Assembly: GCA_035945995.1 (NCBI GenBank)
Contig: DASYZR010000063.1
Location: 1 to 53,082, forward strand
From: a bacterium
Lineage (GTDB): Bacteria; Sysuimicrobiota; Sysuimicrobiia; Sysuimicrobiales; Segetimicrobiaceae
DNA: 53,082 nucleotides
Direction: 5' to 3'
Of this stretch, positions 32,716 to 49,009 are shown one piece after another. Within the stretch, counting starts at the first letter, position 1, and every line of letters begins with the position of its first letter. The notes beneath the pieces are model-generated. The model was not told where the DNA came from and made no database searches. It saw only the letters and a program-made list of their open reading frames with translations. The position numbers were made by a program, and so were the translations under genes.

Positions 32716-33393
32716 ATGCTGCAGTCGCTCAAAGAGGCTATCGACGCGGCCATGACCGACCCGGCGTCCGACAGCATCGAGTGGGTCCACACGACTGCAG
32801 AAATCGTCGAGGGGGTTGAGGTTGTTATCGAGATTGTGACAAGCGCCGGTGGAGTCGGCGCTTTCAGCACGACGATTGCGTCGATGATTGAGGGTACGGC
32901 CGCAGGAGTGGCCCTGCCGGTGCTGGGTGCCGCGGCAGGCGTCGCCGGAGAATTCGCGGCTCTCGGCCTCGGGTATGCTGAGGCGGCAAAGGCCATCAAG
33001 GAGCGCCGCTCGGGAATCGGCTTTGCCTACGGCGTGGCGTTGGGAGTGTCGCATGAAGCACCGGATTTCGTGAAGGCACACTTCGCGGAATGGTCCCCGG
33101 ACGATGAATCGGACTACCAGCTCGAATTTCGCGCGCCGGCGCAGCACTATTATAACTCGGCGCTCGTGCTCGGGTACCGCTATGGGTACGAGCTCAATCA
33201 GGACGAACAGCAGATGCTTTGGAAGGACCTCGCCCGCGATCCGGAGATCCTGAACACGCCGGATAAGGACTCCGACAGCGAGATGGAACAATTCTATCGA
33301 CACGCCGGTCTGAAATTCTACCGGCTGCATATCACGGATGACGGACAAGATGAGAGCACGGCGCCCTCGGATACGGCCGGCAACGGGGGGTAG
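32716..33393 (+). CDS. Unrecognised protein with hydrophobic Gly/Ala-rich helical hairpin
   Basis: A 225-residue protein that I do not recognise. ATG at 32716 follows a strong GAAGGAGGAGG site. Residues about 30-92 form two long, weakly hydrophobic Gly/Ala/Val-rich helices (GVGAFSTTIASMIEGTAAGV and LPVLGAAAGVAGEFAALGLG). Such segments occur in membrane-inserting or pore-forming proteins and in some soluble helical bundles. The C-terminal half is acidic and aromatic (HFAEWSPDDESDYQLEF, HYYNSALVLGYRYGYELNQDEQQMLW) and ends in a disordered acidic tail. There is no signal peptide. Base composition is visibly less GC-rich than in the flanking sugar operons. It lies between a terminator and GlgX. 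Confidence 0.7.
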   Translation: MLQSLKEAIDAAMTDPASDSIEWVHTTAEIVEGVEVVIEIVTSAGGVGAFSTTIASMIEGTAAGVALPVLGAAAGVAGEFAALGLGYAEAAKAIKERRSGIGFAYGVALGVSHEAPDFVKAHFAEWSPDDESDYQLEFRAPAQHYYNSALVLGYRYGYELNQDEQQMLWKDLARDPEILNTPDKDSDSEMEQFYRHAGLKFYRLHITDDGQDESTAPSDTAGNGG

Positions 33394-33451: not shown

Positions 33452-35548
33452 GTGCCGACGTCCCTGCGTGGCGGGAACGTGGCATTCCTGGTAGAAAGAG
33501 GGTCGCCGCATCCTCCGGGGGCCAATCCCGACGGGAGCGGCGTCAACTTCTCGCTCTTTTCGGAAAACGCCACAGGCGTCGATCTCCTCCTGTTTGAGAG
33601 GCACGATGATCCCGAGCCCCGCCAGGTCGTCCACCTGGATCCGAACGTCAACAAGACCTTCCACTTCTGGCACGTCTACGTCCGCGGGCTCCGGCCGGGC
33701 TCACACTACGCGTACCGGGTGGATGGCCCGTCAGAGCTTCGCGAAGGGCATCGTTTCAACAAGAGAAAGGTGCTGATCGATCCCTACGCCCGGGGGAACA
33801 CGAACACCCTTTGGAACCGTGCGAATGCCTGCGGACCCGACGATAATCTCGCCACCTCCATGCGGTCGGTGGTGATCGATTCGTCGGGGTACGACTGGGA
33901 AGGCGATCGGCCCCTCGCCCGGCCCATGGAGGACACGATCATTTACGAACTGCACGTGCGGGGATTCACCCGGTCCCCCTCGTCCGCGGTCGGGCATCCG
34001 GGCACGTTCTCCGGCGTCGTCGAGAAGATCCCGTACCTCAAGACCTTGGGCGTGACGGCGGTCGAGCTCTTGCCGGTCTTTGACTTTGACGAGACGGACG
34101 TACTCCGCACCGTCGACGGCGCGCCGCTCACGAACTATTGGGGCTACAGCACGCTGGGGTTCTTCGCGCCGCAATCCGCGTACTGCGTAGCTCCCGAAAT
34201 CGGGGCGCATCTCCGGGAGTTCCGTGACATGGTGAAAGCGCTGCACCGGGCCGGCATCGAGGTCATTCTCGATGTCGTCTTCAATCACACCGATGAAGGG
34301 AACCATCAGGGGCCCGTCTTTTCCTTCAAAGGCATCGACAATCGCGTCCATTATCTGCTCGTGCCCGCGGACAGACAGTATTATTGCGATTACTCCGGGT
34401 GCGGGAACACGTTCAACTGCAACCACCCGGTTGCCCAAAAACTCATCGTGGACGCGCTCCGCTACTGGGTGCGTGAAGCGCATGTGGACGGATTTCGATT
34501 CGACGAGGGATCGATCTTGTCGCGGGGAGAGGACGGCACCCCCGCGGCGCATCCTCCCGTCATCTGGCAGATCGAGCTCGACGACGAACTGGCGAACTCG
34601 AAAGTGATCGCCGAGGCCTGGGACGCTGCCGGATTGTACCAGGTCGGGCACTTTCCCGGCGATCGCTGGGCGGAGTGGAACGGGCGCTATCGCGACGACA
34701 TCCGCCGGTTCGTCAAGGGAGATCCCGGACAGATCGGCGCCGCGGCCGGCCGGCTGGCCGGCAGCGCCGATATCTATCAAGCCCGGGGACAGCTTCCCGT
34801 CAACAGCATCAATTTCATCACCTGCCACGATGGCTTCACGCTGCGTGACCTGGTTTCCTACGATGCGAAGCACAACGAGGCGAACGGCGAAGGCAACCGA
34901 GACGGCATCGATGACAACCTGAGCTGGAACTGCGGGGCGGAGGGCGACACAACCGATCCTGCGGTCGACGCGCTCAGGGCTCGTCAGATCAAGAATTTCG
35001 CGACCATTCTCCTCCTCTCACGCGGGGTCCCGATGTTTGCGGCGGGAGATGAGATTGGGCGCACCCAGAGGGGGAACAACAACGCCTACTGCCAGGACAA
35101 CGAGATCAGTTGGCTCGATTGGAGTCTTTTGGACACACGGGGCGATTTGTTCCGGTTCTGGGCGCGGATGATCGAATTCCGGAAACGTCACGCTGTCGTG
35201 CGCAGCCGTCAATTCTTCACCGGTGCCGCAACGGCGCGCGGGTTGCCGGACGTCGCCTGGCACGGCTGCCGGTTGAACAGCCCCGGCTGGTCCGATCCGA
35301 ACGCCCGCGCGCTGGGGATGACCCTGGGAGGCGTCGGAGACGATCCGGACATTCACGTCATGCTCAACATGTTCTGGGACCGCCTTGATTTCGACATCCC
35401 GAAGGTGGGCGGGCGGCGGTGGTTCAGAGTGATCGACACGGCCCAACCGTCGCCCCGCGACTTCGTCGATCCCGGCCGTGAGGTTGCGGTTGAGGGGGAC
35501 GTCTGCTCGGTGGAAGGGCGCAGCATTGTCGCGCTGATTTCGAAGTGA
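33452..35548 (+). CDS. glgX: Glycogen debranching enzyme / isoamylase (GH13_11, GlgX-like)
   Basis: A 698-residue alpha-1,6-glucosidase that trims branches from glycogen or related glucans. Residues about 10-115 form the CBM48 domain (GVNFSLFSENATGVDLLLFE). The catalytic barrel has the GH13 regions DVVFNHT (274-280), GFRFDEGS with nucleophile Asp351, VIAEAWD with acid Glu388 and FITCHDG with Asp460. WNCGAEGDTTDP and GDEIGRTQRGNNNAYCQDNE are GlgX/TreX signatures. GTG at 33452 is the given start; a GTG at 33479 is possible. Length is normal. No other glycogen gene is nearby, so it is an isolated copy placed between two unknown genes. The protein has no signal peptide and should act in the cytoplasm. 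Confidence 0.93.
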   Translation: MPTSLRGGNVAFLVERGSPHPPGANPDGSGVNFSLFSENATGVDLLLFERHDDPEPRQVVHLDPNVNKTFHFWHVYVRGLRPGSHYAYRVDGPSELREGHRFNKRKVLIDPYARGNTNTLWNRANACGPDDNLATSMRSVVIDSSGYDWEGDRPLARPMEDTIIYELHVRGFTRSPSSAVGHPGTFSGVVEKIPYLKTLGVTAVELLPVFDFDETDVLRTVDGAPLTNYWGYSTLGFFAPQSAYCVAPEIGAHLREFRDMVKALHRAGIEVILDVVFNHTDEGNHQGPVFSFKGIDNRVHYLLVPADRQYYCDYSGCGNTFNCNHPVAQKLIVDALRYWVREAHVDGFRFDEGSILSRGEDGTPAAHPPVIWQIELDDELANSKVIAEAWDAAGLYQVGHFPGDRWAEWNGRYRDDIRRFVKGDPGQIGAAAGRLAGSADIYQARGQLPVNSINFITCHDGFTLRDLVSYDAKHNEANGEGNRDGIDDNLSWNCGAEGDTTDPAVDALRARQIKNFATILLLSRGVPMFAAGDEIGRTQRGNNNAYCQDNEISWLDWSLLDTRGDLFRFWARMIEFRKRHAVVRSRQFFTGAATARGLPDVAWHGCRLNSPGWSDPNARALGMTLGGVGDDPDIHVMLNMFWDRLDFDIPKVGGRRWFRVIDTAQPSPRDFVDPGREVAVEGDVCSVEGRSIVALISK

Positions 35549-35667: not shown

Positions 35668-37794
35668 ATGAACGCCAACGTCGGAGTTGGGACACTAGGG
35701 AGGCGCATTCTTCGGCAATTTGGTTGCTGCGTGCTGGCAACGCTTCTTCTGACCTGCGCAACACAGACGGTGGGACGTGCGCAGACCCTACTCGCGACGA
35801 ACGAGCCTCGGGTCGTGGGTCTATCCTACACTCAAGCGCGGTGTCTCCTTAGCCTGCGCAATCTTCGGATAAACGCCGCTTGGCCGTCCGGCACCAGGAA
35901 CCCGGATGACGTCGTAATTTCCCAGAGCGGCGGCGCCGACAATGGAATCGTCAGCGTGACCATGGGTCAGCCGTTCGGGCGATTTTCTCCACAAACGGCT
36001 GTAGTGCCCCCGGTCCAAGGCATGCCTTTCGATAGGGCGCGCGCCGTCGCTCAGCAGCGCGAACTTTGCGCGGTCGCGAGGGGCGCAACGTCACCGGACG
36101 CTACAGTGACTGAGCAGCACCCCTACCAAGGGGAGCGGGTCGCGGTCGGGACGACAGTCATTTTGACAATGGGCCCGGTCCAGCCGGCACCCGTCGTGCC
36201 CAAGCCGGTCATTCCATGGCAGCCTCTTCCACAACTTCGTCCGGTCCCGGACGTTCGGGGCCTCTCGGTCGGTGCCGTGAGGCTCAAACTCGCAGATGCA
36301 GGTTTCATCCTCGGGCGGTACACGCCGATGCCGTCGAGTCAGGACCGGGGCACGGTCGTATCTCAGGACCCCCCGCCCGGCAGTCTCAGGACGCTGGGTG
36401 CGCGGGTCGACGTGACGTACGCCATACCGATCGTCGGGACGGTTCCGGATGTGCGCGGACTGCCGGTTGACACGGCCAGAGCCCGGCTTGTAGACGCCGG
36501 CTTTGCGCTCGGATCAACCACATCGACGCAGTCAAGGCAAGATCAGGGGACGATAGTATCTCAGGAGCCGGCTCCGGGCAGTCTCGGGACGCTGGGTGCG
36601 CGGGTCGACGTAGTCTACGCGGTGCCGATACCGCTCCCACGGATACCTGATGTTCGCGGACTGTCGGTTGACACGGCCAGAGCCCGGCTCGCAGACGCCG
36701 GCTTTGCGCTCGGATCAACCGCGCCGGCGCGGTCAAAGCAGGTTCAAGGGACGATAGTGTCTCAGGAACCGGCTCCGGGCAGTCTCAGGACGCTGGGTGC
36801 GCGGGTCGACGTGACGTACGCGGTGCCGCTGCCGCCCCGTCCGAAGCCACCTATTGAGAGTGTAATGCGGACCCCGCCGCCGATTCCGGACGTCCGCCGA
36901 CTGACAGTCGAGGCGGCCAAAGCCCGACTCGCAGGTGCCGGCTTCACGCTCGGATCGACCGCACCGACACCATCGGATCAAAATCAGGGTACGGTCGTAT
37001 CTCAGGATCCCGCTCCGGGCAGTCTCAGGGCATCGGGGACGCCGGTCAATGTGATCTACGCGGTGCCGATCCCTCTCCGGCCGGTTCCGGACGTTCGCCG
37101 GCTGTCTATTGACGGGGCCAAAGCCCGACTCGCAGGTGCCCGGTTTGCGCTCGGATCGACCGCGCCCGAGGAGTCGACTCAGGACCGAGACACGATAGTA
37201 TCTCAGGATCCCGCCCCCGGCAGCATGAGGGCACCGGATACGGCGGTCAACGTAACATACGCCACGCCAATTGTCCGAGCGGTCCCGGACGTTCGAGGAC
37301 TGACGGTCGAGGCGGCCAAGGCTCGACTCGCGGCGGCCGGTTTTGCGGTCGATTCCATTACCTCGGTCGTGGTGGTGTCCACCGCGCATTCGGGAACAGT
37401 GATCGCGCAGCATCCGGTTGCGCACACGGTCGCGCGGCAAGACACGCCGGTCGGCATTGTCTTGGCGGCGACAACGATCCCCGGTCCGATTCAGTGGCCG
37501 CCGGCGTTCGCCGGCACCCTCCTCGCGATTACTGCGTCGGCCGTCGCGGCGAGGGTGCGGCGCGTTCGCAAAGTGCGGTTCATGCGCCGCGTTCGGATCC
37601 AACCGCATCGTCCTCTTGGGACTCTGGGGATCGACTTGAACGCCGAAGAGTTGGGGAACCCTGTCGAGATCCTCGACCGCGATGTTCGCCTCAGGCCCGT
37701 CGTAGACGCGGGGAAACAGGACATCGAGCGACCAGAAGATCTGCTGAGCACGAATGGAGGGAGCGGACATGTCACCGACGTCGGTCACCCTTAG
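35668..37794 (+). CDS. Secreted multi-PASTA-domain protein with C-terminal membrane anchor
   Basis: A 708-residue protein. ATG at 35668 is preferred over 35590 because AGGGGG precedes it and a signal peptide follows (RRILRQFGCCVLATLLLT, cleavage likely near GRAQT). Eight PASTA units follow; the last six begin with I/VPDVRxL at 36244, 36442, 36643, 36883, 37084 and 37282. Each ends in a pattern such as SQDPAPGSL followed by VxVxYA. After them, PPAFAGTLLAITASAVAA (about residues 611-628) is a single membrane helix, followed by the strongly basic RVRRVRKVRFMRRVR and an acidic tail. So the repeats should face outside and the last 80 residues the cytoplasm. No kinase or penicillin-binding domain is present. 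PASTA domains in other proteins bind peptidoglycan fragments or beta-lactams. The next gene starts within its end. Confidence 0.85.
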   Translation: MNANVGVGTLGRRILRQFGCCVLATLLLTCATQTVGRAQTLLATNEPRVVGLSYTQARCLLSLRNLRINAAWPSGTRNPDDVVISQSGGADNGIVSVTMGQPFGRFSPQTAVVPPVQGMPFDRARAVAQQRELCAVARGATSPDATVTEQHPYQGERVAVGTTVILTMGPVQPAPVVPKPVIPWQPLPQLRPVPDVRGLSVGAVRLKLADAGFILGRYTPMPSSQDRGTVVSQDPPPGSLRTLGARVDVTYAIPIVGTVPDVRGLPVDTARARLVDAGFALGSTTSTQSRQDQGTIVSQEPAPGSLGTLGARVDVVYAVPIPLPRIPDVRGLSVDTARARLADAGFALGSTAPARSKQVQGTIVSQEPAPGSLRTLGARVDVTYAVPLPPRPKPPIESVMRTPPPIPDVRRLTVEAAKARLAGAGFTLGSTAPTPSDQNQGTVVSQDPAPGSLRASGTPVNVIYAVPIPLRPVPDVRRLSIDGAKARLAGARFALGSTAPEESTQDRDTIVSQDPAPGSMRAPDTAVNVTYATPIVRAVPDVRGLTVEAAKARLAAAGFAVDSITSVVVVSTAHSGTVIAQHPVAHTVARQDTPVGIVLAATTIPGPIQWPPAFAGTLLAITASAVAARVRRVRKVRFMRRVRIQPHRPLGTLGIDLNAEELGNPVEILDRDVRLRPVVDAGKQDIERPEDLLSTNGGSGHVTDVGHP
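36244..37476 (+). repeat. Six tandem PASTA-coding repeats
   Basis: Direct DNA repeats with starts spaced 198, 201, 240, 201 and 198 bases. Long near-identical stretches recur, for example CTGGGTGCGCGGGTCGACGT in the third to fifth PASTA units (36399, 36591 and 36795). The 240-base unit contains an inserted Pro-rich linker (PLPPRPKPPIESVMRTPPP). High identity between the middle units suggests recent duplication or gene conversion. Confidence 0.85.
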
Positions 37795-38362
37795 GGGGTT
37801 CTTCGCGAGCTCGGACGTTGCCCAGGATCGGTTAGAATCCAGCCCGGAGGTCGCGGCCCTCAGGTCCGCCCTATCGCTCCGGGGCCCCAAGGGCGCGTGG
37901 CCCGGCGTTCGCGGCGGCATTATCGGCTCGATTGATGAACTGATGGATATTCCGTTCGCGGAGATCGCGGCGGGCGCATGGGACAAATATCAGGTCCTTC
38001 GCAAGTATGCGGACCCAAAGAAATATGCTCCCGACGAGGTCATCGAAGTCCCACTCGCGACTCACACCATCAGATCCGAGCACAAGCCTTATCTTGAAAT
38101 CCTGGTCGACGACAAGGTGATGGGGAAAGTTGATTTCGACATCGCGTTGGCGTTGACGCTGGAAGGCGCGGTTGTGAGCATTCGAGACGGCAAGATCAGG
38201 GAGATCCGGGTCGGATCGTGCGAGGGTAGTGGCAGCGTGAAGTGCGAGAACATCGCCATCGCCGAGCGGAAGACCAGGACCTTTCAGTTACCGGGGTCCA
38301 TTCCGCTGCGGGACGGGATATCCGTGGCTCCCCGTGACGGCTCGAGCGGGGTGAGCCCGTAG
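37769..38362 (+). CDS. Unrecognised protein coupled to the PASTA gene
   Basis: A 197-residue protein that I do not recognise. ATG at 37769 is chosen over 37754 because GGAGGG lies seven bases before it; it overlaps the last 26 bases of the PASTA gene, implying coupled translation. Residues about 45-85 are helical (GSIDELMDIPFAEIAAGAWDK). Residues about 90-180 look like a beta-rich binding domain with alternating strands (YLEILVDDKVMGKVDFDIAL, AVVSIRDGKIREIRVG) and two Cys (VGSCEGSGSVKCENIAI) that could form a disulfide or metal site. No signal peptide or membrane helix is seen, so it should be cytoplasmic and could contact the PASTA protein tail. Confidence 0.7.
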   Translation: MSPTSVTLRGFFASSDVAQDRLESSPEVAALRSALSLRGPKGAWPGVRGGIIGSIDELMDIPFAEIAAGAWDKYQVLRKYADPKKYAPDEVIEVPLATHTIRSEHKPYLEILVDDKVMGKVDFDIALALTLEGAVVSIRDGKIREIRVGSCEGSGSVKCENIAIAERKTRTFQLPGSIPLRDGISVAPRDGSSGVSP

Positions 38363-43381: not shown

Positions 43382-44677
43382 ATGCAACGGCTTCGGCGGC
43401 GAGCGTTCCTTCGTCTGACGGCCTTCGCCGCGGCCGGCGGCGCCCTGCTCGGTCGCGCGGCGGCGCAGACCCCGCTCACGCTTCGCATCATGTGGTGGGG
43501 ATCGAAGACCCGGCACGATCGGACCATCAAAGTGCTCGAGATGTACCAGGAGAAGAACCCCGGGATCAAGTTCACCTACGAGTTCACAGGGTTCAACGAC
43601 TACTGGACGCGGCTCGCCACCATGGCCGCGGGCGGCAACCTGCCCGACATCATCCAGCAGGACTACGCGCGGCTCGACGAGTGGGTGGCCAACCGCCTTA
43701 TGATCCCCCTCGACGACTACGTGAAAGACGGCACGATCGACCTCGCCCGGGTCCCGAAGGTCAGCATCGACGGCGGGCGCATCGGCGGCAAACTGTACGC
43801 GATCAACCTCGGCAACAACTCCCAGTCCATGCTCCTGGACGTCGATGCGTTCAAGCGGGCCGGCGTTCCGCTGCCCAATCAACGGTGGACCTGGCAGGAC
43901 TTCGAGCAGATCTGCATGGCGATCCACGATAAGGCGGCGATCTTCGGCTCGGGCTACGCGCTCTCCGATCCCCAAATGTGGAAATCCGTCTACATCGGGC
44001 AGGGACAGTGGGTCTTCGCCAAGGACGGCCGGTCGATCACCGTCGACGACGGGCCGTTCGTCGAGTACCTGAAGATGCTGCTGCGCCTGCAGAAGGCCGG
44101 CGCCGTTCCCTCCCGCCAGCAGGAGATCAGCGAGTATCACGACAACATCGAAGCGCAGCCGATCGTGCCGGCCAAGGCCGCGACGTCATATCAGTGGAGC
44201 AACCAGGTCGTGGCCGAGGATGCGGCCGGCGGCAAGGACCGCCACTACGCGGTCACGCATCTGCCGCGGCCCAAGGGCGGCCGGCCGTCGAACTACCTCA
44301 AGCCGTCGCAGTTCTTCTCGATCACGTCGCACTCCAAGCATCCGAAAGAGAGCGCGGCGGTCATCGACTTTTTCACCAACTCGATCGAAGCCAACCGGGT
44401 GCTGCTGGCCGAGCGGGGCGTGCCCATCGCGCCGAAAGTCCAGGAGGCCCTCAAGCCGCTCTTGAAGCCGATCGACCTCGAGACGTTCCGCTACGTGGCC
44501 CGCGTCCAAACCGACGGCAGCCCGCTCCCGCCGCCCGACCCGCGGAACGAGGGGCCGTTCGAGAACAACGTCTTCACACCGCTCGTGCGCGACGCGGTGC
44601 TGCTCGGAAAGATCACGCCGGAGGAAGGCGCCCGGATCCTCAAGGCCGAGGGCAACAAGGTGCTGGCCAGGTCGTAG
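43382..44677 (+). CDS. Sugar ABC transporter substrate-binding protein (family 1, Tat leader)
   Basis: A 431-residue periplasmic protein. The leader MQRLRRRAFLRLTAFAAAGG contains a twin-arginine motif (RRAFLR) and ends at GRAAAQT without a lipobox. Family 1 features are LRIMWWGSKTRHDRTIKVLEMY, KNPGIKFTYEF, GGNLPDIIQQDYARL and the C-terminal DFFTNSIEANRVLLAERGVP. ATG at 43382 follows a GAGGGGGTGGAA stretch. It heads an operon with two permeases, a GH4 alpha-glucosidase and a LacI regulator, so the ligand is probably an alpha-glucoside or a related oligosaccharide. A LacI-type palindrome lies just upstream. Confidence 0.92.
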   Translation: MQRLRRRAFLRLTAFAAAGGALLGRAAAQTPLTLRIMWWGSKTRHDRTIKVLEMYQEKNPGIKFTYEFTGFNDYWTRLATMAAGGNLPDIIQQDYARLDEWVANRLMIPLDDYVKDGTIDLARVPKVSIDGGRIGGKLYAINLGNNSQSMLLDVDAFKRAGVPLPNQRWTWQDFEQICMAIHDKAAIFGSGYALSDPQMWKSVYIGQGQWVFAKDGRSITVDDGPFVEYLKMLLRLQKAGAVPSRQQEISEYHDNIEAQPIVPAKAATSYQWSNQVVAEDAAGGKDRHYAVTHLPRPKGGRPSNYLKPSQFFSITSHSKHPKESAAVIDFFTNSIEANRVLLAERGVPIAPKVQEALKPLLKPIDLETFRYVARVQTDGSPLPPPDPRNEGPFENNVFTPLVRDAVLLGKITPEEGARILKAEGNKVLARS

Positions 44678-44692
44678 GCGCCCCGGGATCGC

Positions 44693-45655
44693 GTGATCAC
44701 CGACCTTCTGCAGGCCCCGCGCCGAACGGGACCGGCGACCGACCGCGGCGCCCGCCGCCTGCGTCTGCGGCGCGAAACCCTCGCGGGCTATCTGTTCATC
44801 GCGCCGTGGCTCGCCGGATTCCTCGCCTTCACGGTCATTCCCATCGTCGCGTCGCTCGGGCTGGCCTTCACGAGCTACAACATCCTCTCGCCGACGCTCC
44901 GCTGGGTCGGCCTGGAAAATTTCCAGCGCATGTTCACGGAGGATCTGCGCTACTGGACCGCGGTCAGGCAGACGTTCTATTTCGCGTTCACGTCGGTCCC
45001 CTTGAAACTGGCGTTTGCGCTCGCGCTCGCCCTGCTGATGAACCGGCCGAGCCGGCTGGCGGGCGGCTACCGGGCGCTCTACTACCTCCCCTCGATCGTG
45101 GGGGCGAACGTCGCGGTCGCGGTGATGTGGCGGCAGATCTTCGGCGCGGACGGCGTGGTCAACGCACTCCTGGCGGCGCTCGGCATGCCGGCGCACACCG
45201 CGTGGCTGGGAAACCCCGCGACGGCGATCTGGACGGTGGTGGCGCTCGCGGTGTGGGAGTTCGGATCGCCGATGCTCATCTTTCTCGCGGGGCTCAAACA
45301 GATCCCCGCGGAGCTCTACGAGGCCGCGGCGCTCGACGGCGCCGGCACCCTGGCGAGGTTCCGGCGGGTGACGCTGCCCCTCCTCAGCCCCATCATCTTT
45401 TTCAATTTCGTCGTGCAGATGATCTTCGGCTTCACGGTGTTCACGTCGGCGTTCATCATCTCCGGCGGCACGGGCTCGCCGCTCGACAGCCTGCTCTTCT
45501 ATCCCCTGTACCTGTACCAAAAGGGGTTCCGGGATCTCGAGATGGGGTACGCCGCCGGCATGGCGTGGGTCTTGCTCGTGGTCATCGCCGGCCTCACCGC
45601 GCTGATCTTCAAGTCCTCCCGCTACTGGGTCTTTTACGCCCAGGACGAGGGGTAG
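44693..45655 (+). CDS. Sugar ABC transporter permease (MalF-like)
   Basis: A 320-residue inner-membrane subunit starting at GTG 44693. A basic cytoplasmic tail is followed by helix 1 (TLAGYLFIAPWLAGFLAFTVIPIVASLGLAF). The EAA loop is ELYEAAALDGAGTLARFRRV. FTSAFIISGGTGSPLDSLLFYPLYLY is typical of the MalF/UgpA family. It is 15 bases after the binding-protein gene and 6 bases before the partner permease. Confidence 0.92.
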   Translation: MITDLLQAPRRTGPATDRGARRLRLRRETLAGYLFIAPWLAGFLAFTVIPIVASLGLAFTSYNILSPTLRWVGLENFQRMFTEDLRYWTAVRQTFYFAFTSVPLKLAFALALALLMNRPSRLAGGYRALYYLPSIVGANVAVAVMWRQIFGADGVVNALLAALGMPAHTAWLGNPATAIWTVVALAVWEFGSPMLIFLAGLKQIPAELYEAAALDGAGTLARFRRVTLPLLSPIIFFNFVVQMIFGFTVFTSAFIISGGTGSPLDSLLFYPLYLYQKGFRDLEMGYAAGMAWVLLVVIAGLTALIFKSSRYWVFYAQDEG

Positions 45656-45661
45656 ACGACG

Positions 45662-46504
45662 ATGCCGGCACGAACCGCGCTCCGAGGCCTCGCCTACCAC
45701 GCTTTCATGATCGGCTTCGGGTTCGTGATGCTCTACCCGCTGCTGTGGCTGTTAGCCAGCTCGCTGAAAGGGCCCGCGGAGATCTGGACCAACGTGTCGT
45801 CGCTCATCCCGAGATTGCCGACCGGGGAGAACTACGTCCGCGGCTGGGCGGGGTTCGGCGGCGTGTCGTTCGCCACGTTCTACAAGAACTCGTTCTTCTA
45901 CGCCGGCCTCGGTACGATCCTGACCGTCTGCTCATCGGCCGCGGCGGCGTACGGCTTCGCCCGGATCCGGTTCACCGGGCGGCGGTTCTGGTTCGCGGTG
46001 ATGATGTCGACGCTGCTGCTGCCGGTGGAAGTCCAGATCGTTCCGCAGTACATCCTGTTTACGAAGCTCGGGTGGCTCAACACCTACCTGCCGCTCCTGG
46101 TCCCCAAGGTGGGCGGCCAGGCGTTCTTCATCTTCATGATCATGCAGTTCATCCGCGGCGTCCCCGCCGAGCTCGACGATGCGGCGGCGATCGACGGCTG
46201 CAACAAGGTGGGGATCTTCTTCCGGGTGGTGCTGCCGCTCATCACGCCGGTCCTCGTCGCCGCGGCGATCTTCTCCTTCTACTTCACCTGGAGCGACTTC
46301 CTGAACCCGCTGATCTACCTGAACGACCCGAACCTGTACACCATCTCGGTGGCCCTCCGATCGTACGCCGATCCGGCCGGGGCGACGGATTGGGGCGCGG
46401 TGTTCGCCATGTCGGCGCTGTCGCTTGCGCCGGTGTTCGTGATCTTCATTCTGCTGCAGCGCTACCTGGTGCAGGGCATCAGCACGACGGGCTTGCGGGG
46501 ATAG
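45662..46504 (+). CDS. Sugar ABC transporter permease (MalG-like)
   Basis: A 280-residue inner-membrane subunit. MalG-type features are FVMLYPLLWLLASSLKGPAEI, YGFARIRFTGRRFWF, the EAA loop DDAAAIDGCNKVGIFFRVVLP and the terminal LLQRYLVQGISTTGLRG. ATG at 45662 directly follows the first permease. The ATPase is not encoded in the window. Confidence 0.93.
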   Translation: MPARTALRGLAYHAFMIGFGFVMLYPLLWLLASSLKGPAEIWTNVSSLIPRLPTGENYVRGWAGFGGVSFATFYKNSFFYAGLGTILTVCSSAAAAYGFARIRFTGRRFWFAVMMSTLLLPVEVQIVPQYILFTKLGWLNTYLPLLVPKVGGQAFFIFMIMQFIRGVPAELDDAAAIDGCNKVGIFFRVVLPLITPVLVAAAIFSFYFTWSDFLNPLIYLNDPNLYTISVALRSYADPAGATDWGAVFAMSALSLAPVFVIFILLQRYLVQGISTTGLRG

Positions 46505-46540
46505 CGGCCGCATCACCGGGACGACGGGAGGGAAACTTCG

Positions 46541-47935
46541 ATGAAGATCGGGTTTATCGGCGGCGGCAGCGTGCAGTGGACGCCCATGCTCGTGGCGGAC
46601 CTGGCGATGAACCGCGCGCTTGCCGGCGCGGAGCTGGTCCTGCACGACATCGACGCCGACGCGCTGGCCTTGATGGCCCGGGCCGGCCGCCGGGTCGTCG
46701 AGCAACTCGACGGGCGGATGACAATCACCACCAGCACCGAGCGCGCCGAGGCGCTGCGCGACGCCGATTTCGTGATCCTCTGCGTGGCGATCGGCGGCCT
46801 GCGCGCGATGGGGAGCGACCTTGCCATCTCGCAGCGCCACGGCATCCATCATACGGTCGGCGACACGGTCGGGCCGGCGGGGCTGGCCCGCGGCCTGCGC
46901 CACGTCCCGTTCGCGGTGCAGGTGGCCCGCGAGATGGAAGCACTGTGCCCCCGTGCCTGGCTGCTGAACTTGACGAACCCGATGACGACGATCTGCCGGG
47001 GCGTCACGCGGGCAACCGCCATTCGCACCGTGGGACTCTGTCACGAGGTGGATCTCTTTCGCGTCAACCGGCTGGCGCCGTGGTTCGGGGTGCCGGCCGA
47101 GACGATCACCGTCGAGGTCGCCGGCGTCAATCACCTCCCGGCGATCCTCGGCCTTCGTCTTGGCGACCAGGACGGCATCGCGGCGCTGCGGGCGTGGCTG
47201 GACCGGCACAGTCCGTTCGAGTTCATGGGGGACCACGCCCCGGAGCCCCACCGGGACGTCTTCAGAGACCGCCTCGCCGTCAAGCTGACCCTGTTCGACC
47301 AGCTCGGCGTGCTGTTCGGGGCCGGCGATCGCCATCTCGCCGAGTTCTTCCCGTCCTTCATTTCCGACGCCGCCGACCGGGGCGCGCGCTACGGCGTGCT
47401 GTTGACTACGGTCGAGCACCGGATGGCCAACGGGCAGGCCCGGCGGGCGTGGGCGGAGCGCTTCGTCGCAGGCGAGCGGGCGACGCTCCAGCATTCCGCG
47501 GAGACCCTGGCGCCGGTGATGGCCGCGCTGGCCGGCGGACCCTCGGGCCGGTTCGTCGTCAACGTCCCGAACCGCGGGCAGATCGACAACCTGCCGCGGG
47601 ACGCGGTCGTGGAATGCGTCGCCGAGGTCGATGCCCTCGGCATCCGGCCGGTGGCGGTCGGGGCGCTGCCCCTTCCGCTGTACGCGGCGGTCGCGCCGCA
47701 TCTCGCCTGGCAGGAACTCGTCGTCGAGGCGGCGCTCACGGGGAGGCGGGCGGCGGCGCGGGCGGCGATGGCGGTCGATCCGATGGTCGGAGATCCCGCG
47801 ATCGTGGATCCATTGCTCGACGAGTTGCTGGCGGCCAACGCGCCGTTCGTCCATGCCACGGAAGGAGGCGGCCCCGCGCAAAGCGCGGGGCAGGCTCGCG
47901 CGGCGTCGCACCCGACGGCGTCCGGACGCGCCTAG
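46541..47935 (+). CDS. Glycoside hydrolase family 4, probable alpha-glucosidase
   Basis: A 464-residue NAD+- and metal-dependent glycosidase that cleaves by oxidation and elimination. The dinucleotide motif KIGFIGGGSVQWTP is at the N-terminus. The metal ligands are Cys167 in GLCHEV and His198 in GVNHLP, with NLTNPM before them. The CHEV form of the Cys motif marks alpha-glucosidases (AglA-like) in this family, rather than the CHS of alpha-galactosidases or the CDMP/CNVP of phospho-glucosidases, which suits an unphosphorylated substrate taken up by an ABC importer. ATG at 46541 has a GGGAGGG site. The Ala/Gly/Ser-rich last 30 residues are an unusual tail. Confidence 0.9.
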   Translation: MKIGFIGGGSVQWTPMLVADLAMNRALAGAELVLHDIDADALALMARAGRRVVEQLDGRMTITTSTERAEALRDADFVILCVAIGGLRAMGSDLAISQRHGIHHTVGDTVGPAGLARGLRHVPFAVQVAREMEALCPRAWLLNLTNPMTTICRGVTRATAIRTVGLCHEVDLFRVNRLAPWFGVPAETITVEVAGVNHLPAILGLRLGDQDGIAALRAWLDRHSPFEFMGDHAPEPHRDVFRDRLAVKLTLFDQLGVLFGAGDRHLAEFFPSFISDAADRGARYGVLLTTVEHRMANGQARRAWAERFVAGERATLQHSAETLAPVMAALAGGPSGRFVVNVPNRGQIDNLPRDAVVECVAEVDALGIRPVAVGALPLPLYAAVAPHLAWQELVVEAALTGRRAAARAAMAVDPMVGDPAIVDPLLDELLAANAPFVHATEGGGPAQSAGQARAASHPTASGRA

Positions 47936-47947
47936 GGGCCCGCGACG

Positions 47948-49009
47948 ATGGTCTCGGTGTACGACGTCGCGCAGCGCGCCGGCGTATCTCCGGCAACGGC
48001 GTCGCGCGTGCTGTCCGGGTCGTCCTACCCGGTGCGCGCGAGAACCCGCGAGCGGGTCCTGCGGTCGGCGAAGATCCTGGATTTCCGTCCCAGCATGGTG
48101 GCGCGGGCTCTCGTTACGGCGCGCACACGCACGCTCGGCGCCATCGTGCACGACGTGTCCGACCCGTACTTCGGCGAGGTTCTGCGTGGCCTCGAAGGCG
48201 CGGCGCACGCGAACGGCTATCAGATGTTTGTCTGCAGCTCGAATCGCGAGACGCAGCGCGAACTGGCGTACGTCCGATCCCTGCTGTCGTACCGCGTCGA
48301 CGCCATCCTCTTCTGCGGGGGCGGCATCGACGACCGGCGCTACGGCACCGAGTTGCGCCGGCTGCTGGACGGGTACCGCAAGACGGGGGGCGCCGTGGTG
48401 ACCCTGGCGCCGCACGGGTACCGGGCGCCGAGCGTCACCGCCGACAACCGCGGCGGCGCCGTCGCGATGGCCCGGCACCTGCTGGATCTGGGGCACCGGC
48501 GGCTCGGCGTGGTGGCCGGGCCGGCCTCGATTCGCACCGGCACGGTCCGCGTCGCCGGCTTCCGGGCCGCCTTGGCCGAACGCGGGGTGGCGCTTGCGCC
48601 CGACCTGATCGTTTCAGGGGAATTCACCGCGGAGGGCGGCGCCGCGGCGGTCTCGCGCCTTCTCGACCGCGACCCCGCGATCACCGCGGTCCTCTGCGCC
48701 AACGACGTCATGGCGTTCGGCGTTCTGCACGAGCTCGCCGGCCGGGGGATCCGCGTGCCGCAGACGGTGTCGGTCGCCGGCTTCGGCGACGTCAGGATGG
48801 CCGCGTACACGAACCCGCCCCTATCGACCGTCGCCGTCCCGCGGTACGAGATCGGATGGCAGGGCGTGCACGCGGCCCTCGCCCTCCTCGCCGGGGAACC
48901 GGTGCGGTCACGCCGCCTGCCGGTGTCGGTGGTTGCCCGCGCGTCGACCGGACGCGTGCCGGAGCGCACCGCGTCGGGACGGCGCGAGCAGCGCCGGCGG
49001 GCGGGCTGA
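47948..49009 (+). CDS. LacI-family transcriptional repressor
   Basis: A 353-residue regulator. Residues 3-22 form the helix-turn-helix (SVYDVAQRAGVSPATASRVL), followed by the hinge region and a periplasmic-binding-protein-like sensor domain (TLGAIVHDVSDPYFGEVLRGLE through VSVAGFGDVRMAAYTNPPLSTV). ATG at 47948 is 12 bases after the GH4 gene, so it is the last gene of the operon it probably controls. The palindrome at 43328 is the natural operator. The inducer is likely the imported glucoside or a breakdown product. The last 25 residues are an Arg-rich tail of no obvious role. Confidence 0.93.
   Translation: MVSVYDVAQRAGVSPATASRVLSGSSYPVRARTRERVLRSAKILDFRPSMVARALVTARTRTLGAIVHDVSDPYFGEVLRGLEGAAHANGYQMFVCSSNRETQRELAYVRSLLSYRVDAILFCGGGIDDRRYGTELRRLLDGYRKTGGAVVTLAPHGYRAPSVTADNRGGAVAMARHLLDLGHRRLGVVAGPASIRTGTVRVAGFRAALAERGVALAPDLIVSGEFTAEGGAAAVSRLLDRDPAITAVLCANDVMAFGVLHELAGRGIRVPQTVSVAGFGDVRMAAYTNPPLSTVAVPRYEIGWQGVHAALALLAGEPVRSRRLPVSVVARASTGRVPERTASGRREQRRRAG

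What the first reader, a model, noticed from the sequence alone, without database searches (positions are those of the whole stretch)
35668..38362. Kinase-free PASTA receptor with reversed topology and a coupled cytoplasmic partner
Known PASTA kinases have a cytoplasmic N-terminal kinase and outer C-terminal PASTA repeats. Here a signal peptide and eight PASTA units come first, then one membrane helix, a very basic stretch and an 80-residue cytoplasmic tail. The next gene starts within the last codons and encodes an unknown soluble protein, a good candidate to bind that tail. Together they could form an undescribed envelope-sensing pair.
Basis: partly seen in the sequence, partly recalled or inferred. 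Interest (0 to 1): 0.62.

Follow-up and report, generated by a model that had tools for sequence, protein, structure and literature searches.

The report
Membrane receptor and overlapping partner gene
The window carries a two-gene unit, a surface protein with a membrane helix and a short inner tail plus a soluble partner made from an overlapping gene, that recurs in about 50 bacterial loci from at least five phyla and matches no described system, although what it does is untested.

Summary
Window 35668-37794 encodes a signal peptide, seven clear PASTA repeats plus one degenerate one, one membrane helix, a basic stretch and a 78-residue tail, with no kinase. An overlapping gene (37754 or 37769 to 38362) encodes a 202-residue protein with no family or fold match.

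I found the partner in 52 other loci; 48 have, directly upstream, a membrane protein of the same plan, overlapping by exactly 4 bp in 43. The tails share a motif (consensus V-R-L-E-P-[HR]-x-D-P-G-x-Q-x-I-x-E) in 45 of 49, against 4 expected. In Streptomycetaceae all 17 genomes with a strong tail match have the partner next to it.

The ectodomain is exchangeable: PASTA in 23 of 48, PKD in 5, Ig-like repeats in most others. So the unit is tail plus partner, not PASTA. It is patchy and lower in GC than its surroundings, as if transferred, and has no constant third gene.

Best explanation: the tail motif docks the partner, coupling an envelope-binding ectodomain to the cytoplasm. Pairing is well supported by genomics. 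Binding, topology and sensing are inferred, not shown.

The parts
35668..37794 (+). Receptor-like gene, 708 aa: signal peptide, PASTA repeats, one TM helix, cytoplasmic tail
   Evidence: SD-like GAGGGGG just before ATG 35668
35668..35784 (+). Signal peptide region (aa 1-39; hydrophobic core aa 17-32)
   Evidence: hydropathy; cleavage site not tested
35803..35973 (+). Degenerate first PASTA-like unit
   Evidence: Pfam E 0.097, below cut-off
36001..36174 (+). PASTA repeat 1
   Evidence: 28.1 bits
36244..36417 (+). PASTA repeat 2
   Evidence: 38.7 bits
36439..36612 (+). PASTA repeat 3
   Evidence: 44.1 bits
36640..36816 (+). PASTA repeat 4
   Evidence: 42.1 bits
36883..37056 (+). PASTA repeat 5
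   Evidence: 47.1 bits
37084..37263 (+). PASTA repeat 6
   Evidence: 36.2 bits
37282..37464 (+). PASTA repeat 7
   Evidence: 43 bits
37498..37557 (+). Transmembrane helix (aa 611-630)
   Evidence: hydropathy 1.43 over 19 residues here; an equivalent segment in all relatives, mostly stronger
37552..37596 (+). Basic juxtamembrane stretch RVRRVRKVRFMRRVR
   Evidence: sequence; net charge of the first 15 residues after the TM averages +4.3 in 49 tails
37558..37791 (+). Predicted cytoplasmic tail (aa 631-708)
   Evidence: conserved between lineages whose ectodomains differ
37591..37635 (+). Tail motif, first degenerate copy VRIQPHRPLGTLGID
   Evidence: by eye, comparison with relatives
37684..37728 (+). 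Tail motif, main copy VRLRPVVDAGKQDIE (consensus VRLEP[HR]xDPGxQxIxE)
   Evidence: 45 of 49 tails; shuffle mean 4.0, max 10
37769..37794 (+). Gene overlap (41 bp if the partner starts at 37754)
   Evidence: sequence; 43 of 48 relatives overlap by exactly 4 bp
37754..38362 (+). Partner gene, 202 aa (likely start ATG 37769, 197 aa), no signal peptide, unknown family
   Evidence: homologues
38039..38323 (+). Partner C-terminal nine-strand beta region (aa 96-190) with invariant H104 and P112; invariant W76 lies in the helical part before it
   Evidence: AlphaFold models of two homologues agree; invariants

Best explanation
A two-gene receptor-partner unit. The first protein is exported, binds the cell envelope with a string of repeats (PASTA here; PKD or Ig-like repeats elsewhere), crosses the membrane once and leaves a short tail inside. 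The tail carries one or two copies of a short strand-turn-strand motif (phi-R-phi-x-P-x-x-D-P-G-x-Q-x-I-x-E). The partner, made at the overlap so that both appear together, docks on that motif, most likely by adding the tail strands to the edge of its own beta domain. Its helical N-terminal part is then free to contact something else. The pair would thus tie an envelope state to a cytoplasmic target by recruitment, without an enzyme. Shown: the sequence anatomy, the conserved overlapping pair, the conserved tail with exchanged ectodomains, and tail-partner co-inheritance. Inferred: topology, binding, strand addition, sensing.
For: Pairing: partner homologues were found in 52 other loci; 48 have the receptor directly upstream, with a 4-bp overlap in 43. 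Reciprocity: of 249 Streptomycetaceae genomes, 17 have a strong tail match (E <= 1e-14), and all 17 have the partner adjacent. Tail motif in 45 of 49 tails against 4 after shuffling; D in 40, G in 45 and Q in 42 of 45. In pairs whose partners are under 30% identical, tails keep 25% identity and ectodomains 18%. The ectodomain class changes at least seven times on the partner tree. L126 has a 32-residue tail holding just the basic stretch and one motif, which suggests that this is the minimal working unit. The partner shows no signal-like segment; tails are strongly basic after the TM. No recurrent third gene, so the unit looks self-contained.
Against: No complex was modelled and no interaction data exist. 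The Caballeronia partner (L023) stands without a receptor. Four of 49 tails lack the strict motif. Co-inheritance of neighbouring genes also fits joint transfer without binding. The TM helix of the window protein is weakly hydrophobic. Tail and partner conservation is partly shared ancestry; several Actinomycetota loci are near-copies.
Confidence: 0.55

Rival explanations
1. Structural anchor: the pair tethers a cytoplasmic structure or complex to the envelope (the partner as linker), with no regulated signal.
For: No enzymatic domain in either protein; ectodomains are generic adhesion or spacer folds; one partner homologue lies beside an eCIS_core gene, and eCIS_core is somewhat more frequent in pair-bearing genomes (CMH p 0.014).
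Confidence: 0.2
2. The partner is a dedicated chaperone or assembly factor for its membrane protein; the tail is a handling signal and the ectodomain alone does the work.
For: Overlapping, receptor-first gene order fits a dedicated accessory; three of 49 partners give a weak Pfam match to the EspG secretion-chaperone family (best E 3.8e-4).
Against: The EspG match is absent from 46 members; no PDB relative by profile or fold. A signal-peptide substrate needs no dedicated cytosolic chaperone, and the tail is made last.
Confidence: 0.15
3. Mobile defence or conflict module: patchy spread and horizontal transfer reflect an anti-phage or competition role.
For: Sporadic occurrence (1 of 257, 1 of 155, 21 of 298, 20 of 299, 5 of 150 genomes), absent from the window's genus and family, low GC of the partner gene.
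Against: PADLOC hits are only PASTA repeats in PD-T4-6 kinase models; partners score nothing. No phage homologues; no toxin-like or nuclease domain.
Confidence: 0.07
4. Two unrelated neighbouring genes with a chance overlap; the receptor is an ordinary surface PASTA protein.
For: Overlaps between functionally unrelated genes are common in dense genomes.
Against: 48 of 52 partner loci keep the same neighbour type, across at least five phyla, with a conserved tail and exchanged ectodomain.
Confidence: 0.03

Closest known systems
PASTA serine/threonine kinases (PknB/StkP/Stk1 type, NF033483)
   Same: PASTA repeats outside, one membrane helix, something functional inside.
   Different: No kinase domain; [quoted passage not shown] Three true PASTA kinases sit elsewhere in this genome.
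Sortase-anchored or C-terminally anchored surface proteins
   Same: Signal peptide, repeats, C-terminal helix, basic residues after it.
   Different: No LPxTG-like site before the helix in the window protein; a long conserved tail with its own motif, and a conserved overlapping partner gene.
Sensor pairs with non-enzymatic single-pass receptors (for example FecR/sigma or RsgI/SigI type; from general knowledge)
   Same: Outer domain, one helix, inner part that would bind a cognate protein encoded beside it; exchangeable outer domains as in RsgI.
   Different: The partner is neither a sigma factor nor DNA-binding by any library; the receptor has a signal peptide and a C-terminal tail, whereas those anti-sigma factors carry the inner part at the N-terminus.
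PASTA-bearing penicillin-binding proteins
   Same: PASTA repeats.
   Different: No transpeptidase domain.

Membership tests
PASTA Ser/Thr kinase | PASTA repeats | tested here: met
   PF03793 6.1e-75
PASTA Ser/Thr kinase | Kinase catalytic domain | tested here: not met
   No Pkinase match; NF033483 scores 189 of 450 bits, best stretch over the PASTA region
PASTA Ser/Thr kinase | Repeats C-terminal to the membrane helix | tested here: not met
   Repeats end at aa 599, helix at 611-630
Sortase-anchored surface protein | LPxTG-like sorting site before the C-terminal helix and a short tail | tested here: not met
   Absent by reading of P0001; tail of 78 residues with a family motif
Anti-sigma/sigma or response-regulator pair | Partner is a sigma factor or DNA-binding regulator | tested here: not met
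   No Pfam or NCBIfam match for the window partner; no such Pfam family in 49 members
EspG (ESX secretion chaperone, PF14011) | Family-wide sequence match | tested here: not met
   3 of 49 members, best E 3.8e-4; profile finds no EspG chain in the PDB at E <= 10
Extracellular contractile injection system (eCIS) component | Linkage to eCIS genes | tested here: not met
   Only the receptor-less Caballeronia locus lies beside an eCIS_core gene
Gasdermin-like pore former | Fold similarity of the partner | tested here: not met
   Top Foldseek rows are gasdermin pores, but E 0.044 or worse and TM at most 0.22
Receptor-adaptor coupling pair (how it would work) | Tail binds the partner | not testable with these tools
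   No multimer modelling; indirect genomic support only

The most novel reading that the evidence does not exclude
A previously undescribed, horizontally spread bacterial receptor system that works by a short inner-tail motif recruiting a dedicated soluble partner of a new fold, with interchangeable envelope-binding ectodomains: transmembrane coupling without kinase, sigma factor or any other known enzyme.
Probability: 0.42. Interest if true: 0.78.

Novelty: categorically new. Interest (0 to 1): 0.64.

Why it matters
If right, bacteria have a modular class of single-pass receptors defined by an inner tail motif and a cognate partner, into which PASTA, PKD or Ig-like ectodomains are slotted. 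That is unlike the kinase-centred view of PASTA signalling. It would add an unnamed protein family with no solved relative, and give a simple first test (does the tail bind the partner, and does the D-x-G-x-Q motif matter) in culturable Embleya, Microbispora and other Streptomycetaceae.

Tried and rejected
(1) One-protein scan of genome contigs with P0002: no relatives; the alignment seeded from plasmid hits found five. (2) Viral contigs and phages: none. (3) Pfam, NCBIfam, PADLOC and PDB for the partner: nothing; PHROG 'baseplate' 1.8e-3 for one homologue's helices only, taken as chance. (4) Foldseek of two models against PDB and of one against viral structures: nothing at E <= 1e-3; gasdermin and maturation-protein rows rejected for TM about 0.2. 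(5) Tail-partner fusion for folding through a frame-moving word: AGCA is read twice, so it could not serve. A second such word was not tried because the tool states one only. (6) EspG link: rejected as sporadic. (7) eCIS link: physical linkage absent outside Caballeronia, genome-level association confounded. (8) Conserved third gene: none among neighbours within 6 kb. (9) Literature: no paper describing this architecture; most subscription journals are not covered.

Full report
What is there. The receptor gene (35668-37794) encodes a hydrophobic signal-like N-terminus, seven PASTA repeats above the Pfam cut-off and one degenerate unit before them. These are followed by a hydrophobic segment (aa 611-630), a basic stretch and a 78-residue tail. 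There is no kinase or transpeptidase domain. The second gene starts inside the last codons of the first. The ORF opens at ATG 37754, but ATG 37769 lies behind a good Shine-Dalgarno (GGAGGGAG) and fits the N-termini of relatives better. Its product has no signal-like segment and no match in Pfam, NCBIfam, PADLOC or the PDB. The genome also holds three ordinary PASTA kinases on other contigs, so this is not a displaced kinase part.

The pair elsewhere. A tblastn search of plasmids found distant partner homologues in two Embleya and two Caballeronia plasmids (the two Caballeronia copies are identical and counted once). In both Embleya plasmids the gene just upstream overlaps by 4 bp and encodes a signal peptide, a Pro-rich region and an Ig-like domain, a helix, a basic stretch and a tail resembling the window's. 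An alignment scan of 84,980 genomes added Syntrophus, a Bryobacterales MAG, a Rhodanobacteraceae MAG, Microbispora oryzae and Embleya scabrispora, all with the same arrangement. Profile searches around these gave 21 of 298 Streptomycetaceae, 20 of 299 Streptosporangiales, 5 of 150 genomes of the Rhodanobacteraceae MAG's family, 1 of 257 in the Bryobacterales order, 1 of 155 in the Syntrophus class, and no other member in the window's own genus, family or order.

Statistics of the pair. After fetching 44 loci with flanks, 52 loci outside the window were examined, and 48 of them show a receptor directly upstream. In 43 of these 48 the overlap is exactly 4 bp (L100 corrected). Exceptions without a receptor are Caballeronia (L023) and three fragmentary partners in G868, G1004 and G901. 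The motif G-x-[QH]-x-[ILVF] occurs in 45 of 49 tails, against a mean of 4.0 and a maximum of 10 in 500 shuffles. The consensus around it is V-R-L-E-P-[HR]-x-D-P-G-x-Q-x-I-x-E. Many tails have a second, earlier, looser copy (by eye). Net charge just after the helix averages +4.3. A reciprocal search with the tail profile in 249 Streptomycetaceae genomes gave 17 strong hits, each beside a partner gene, and no strong hit without one. Several Actinomycetota loci are near-copies, so the number of independent lineages is well below 48.

Ectodomains. Pfam finds PASTA in 23 of 48 receptors and PKD in 5, three of which carry both by reading. The rest are mostly Ig-like repeats with only scattered weak matches. 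On a maximum-likelihood tree of 49 partners the ectodomain classes need at least seven changes, PASTA alone five, of which at least three are forced by well supported branches. The window falls with Syntrophus, Bryobacterales and the four further genomes from the Rhodanobacteraceae MAG's family in a supported group. So the PASTA repeats are a replaceable front end; the constant part is helix, tail motif and partner. The window repeats 36358-36828 are DNA-level tandem copies (85% matches), so repeat number probably changes quickly.

Partner structure. AlphaFold models of the window partner (pLDDT 73, pTM 0.62) and of its Syntrophus relative (pLDDT 76, pTM 0.69) agree: six helices, then nine strands. 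W76, H104 and P112 are invariant in 49 sequences. No catalytic triad is evident. Foldseek finds nothing at E <= 1e-3. The models are of moderate confidence from six sequences, so 'new fold' is a suggestion only.

Mobility. Sporadic occurrence, absence from near relatives, plasmid copies and low GC (partner 61% against a window mean of 69%, in the lowest 1% of 600-bp windows) fit horizontal transfer. Neighbouring genes on the same side are also somewhat low in GC (61-64%), so the GC evidence is soft. No third gene recurs near the pair.

Mechanism. The D-P-G turn flanked by alternating hydrophobic positions reads as a small hairpin. The shortest tail known (L126, 32 residues) is just the basic stretch plus one such motif. 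The simplest account is that this hairpin docks the partner, probably by strand addition to its beta domain, and so couples the state of the envelope-bound ectodomain to the cytoplasm. The pairing is well supported. Direct binding I put at about 0.75 and regulated sensing at about 0.5; the statement as a whole at 0.55, counting docking as its core. A static anchor or a dedicated chaperone remain possible.

Compared with what is known. It is not a PASTA kinase (kinase and topology tests failed), not a sortase substrate, not an anti-sigma pair, and not EspG, eCIS or gasdermin by the tests listed. It works like a receptor-adaptor pair but belongs to no family I could find. The literature search covered only open-access papers, so earlier mention elsewhere is possible. 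I label it categorically new in the sense that no described family or system I could search contains it; its function is unproven.

Noticed in passing
window 32716-33393 (+): 225-aa ORF with no Pfam match, hydrophobic Gly/Ala-rich middle and low GC like the partner gene; about 2.3 kb upstream of the receptor.
   Followed up: partly
window 33452-35548 (+): Glycogen-debranching (GlgX-like) enzyme gene directly upstream of the receptor; name from reading, not searched.
   Followed up: no
window 43382-49009 (+): Sugar ABC transporter genes (binding protein, two permeases), a glycosidase-like gene (46541-47935) and a LacI-type regulator (47948-49009); named by reading.
   Followed up: no
window 36358-36828 and 36879-37250: PASTA repeats are DNA-level tandem copies (period 201 bp, 85% and 76% matches), suggesting change of repeat number.
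   Followed up: partly
L023 7872-8453 and 8632-10470: Caballeronia plasmids carry a lone partner homologue without a receptor, convergent with an eCIS_core (DUF4157) gene.
   Followed up: partly
G868, G901, G1004 (L104, L106, L105): Fragmentary partner genes with no upstream receptor, as if both halves decay together.
   Followed up: partly
L127, L128, L129: Receptors that carry PASTA and PKD domains in the same ectodomain, possible intermediates in ectodomain exchange.
   Followed up: partly
G1529 contig C160, 3627-7781: Three eCIS_core domains in close succession on one contig.
   Followed up: no
G000 contigs C9, C131, C154: Three canonical PASTA kinases in the window's genome, each with two or three PASTA repeats.
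   Followed up: yes
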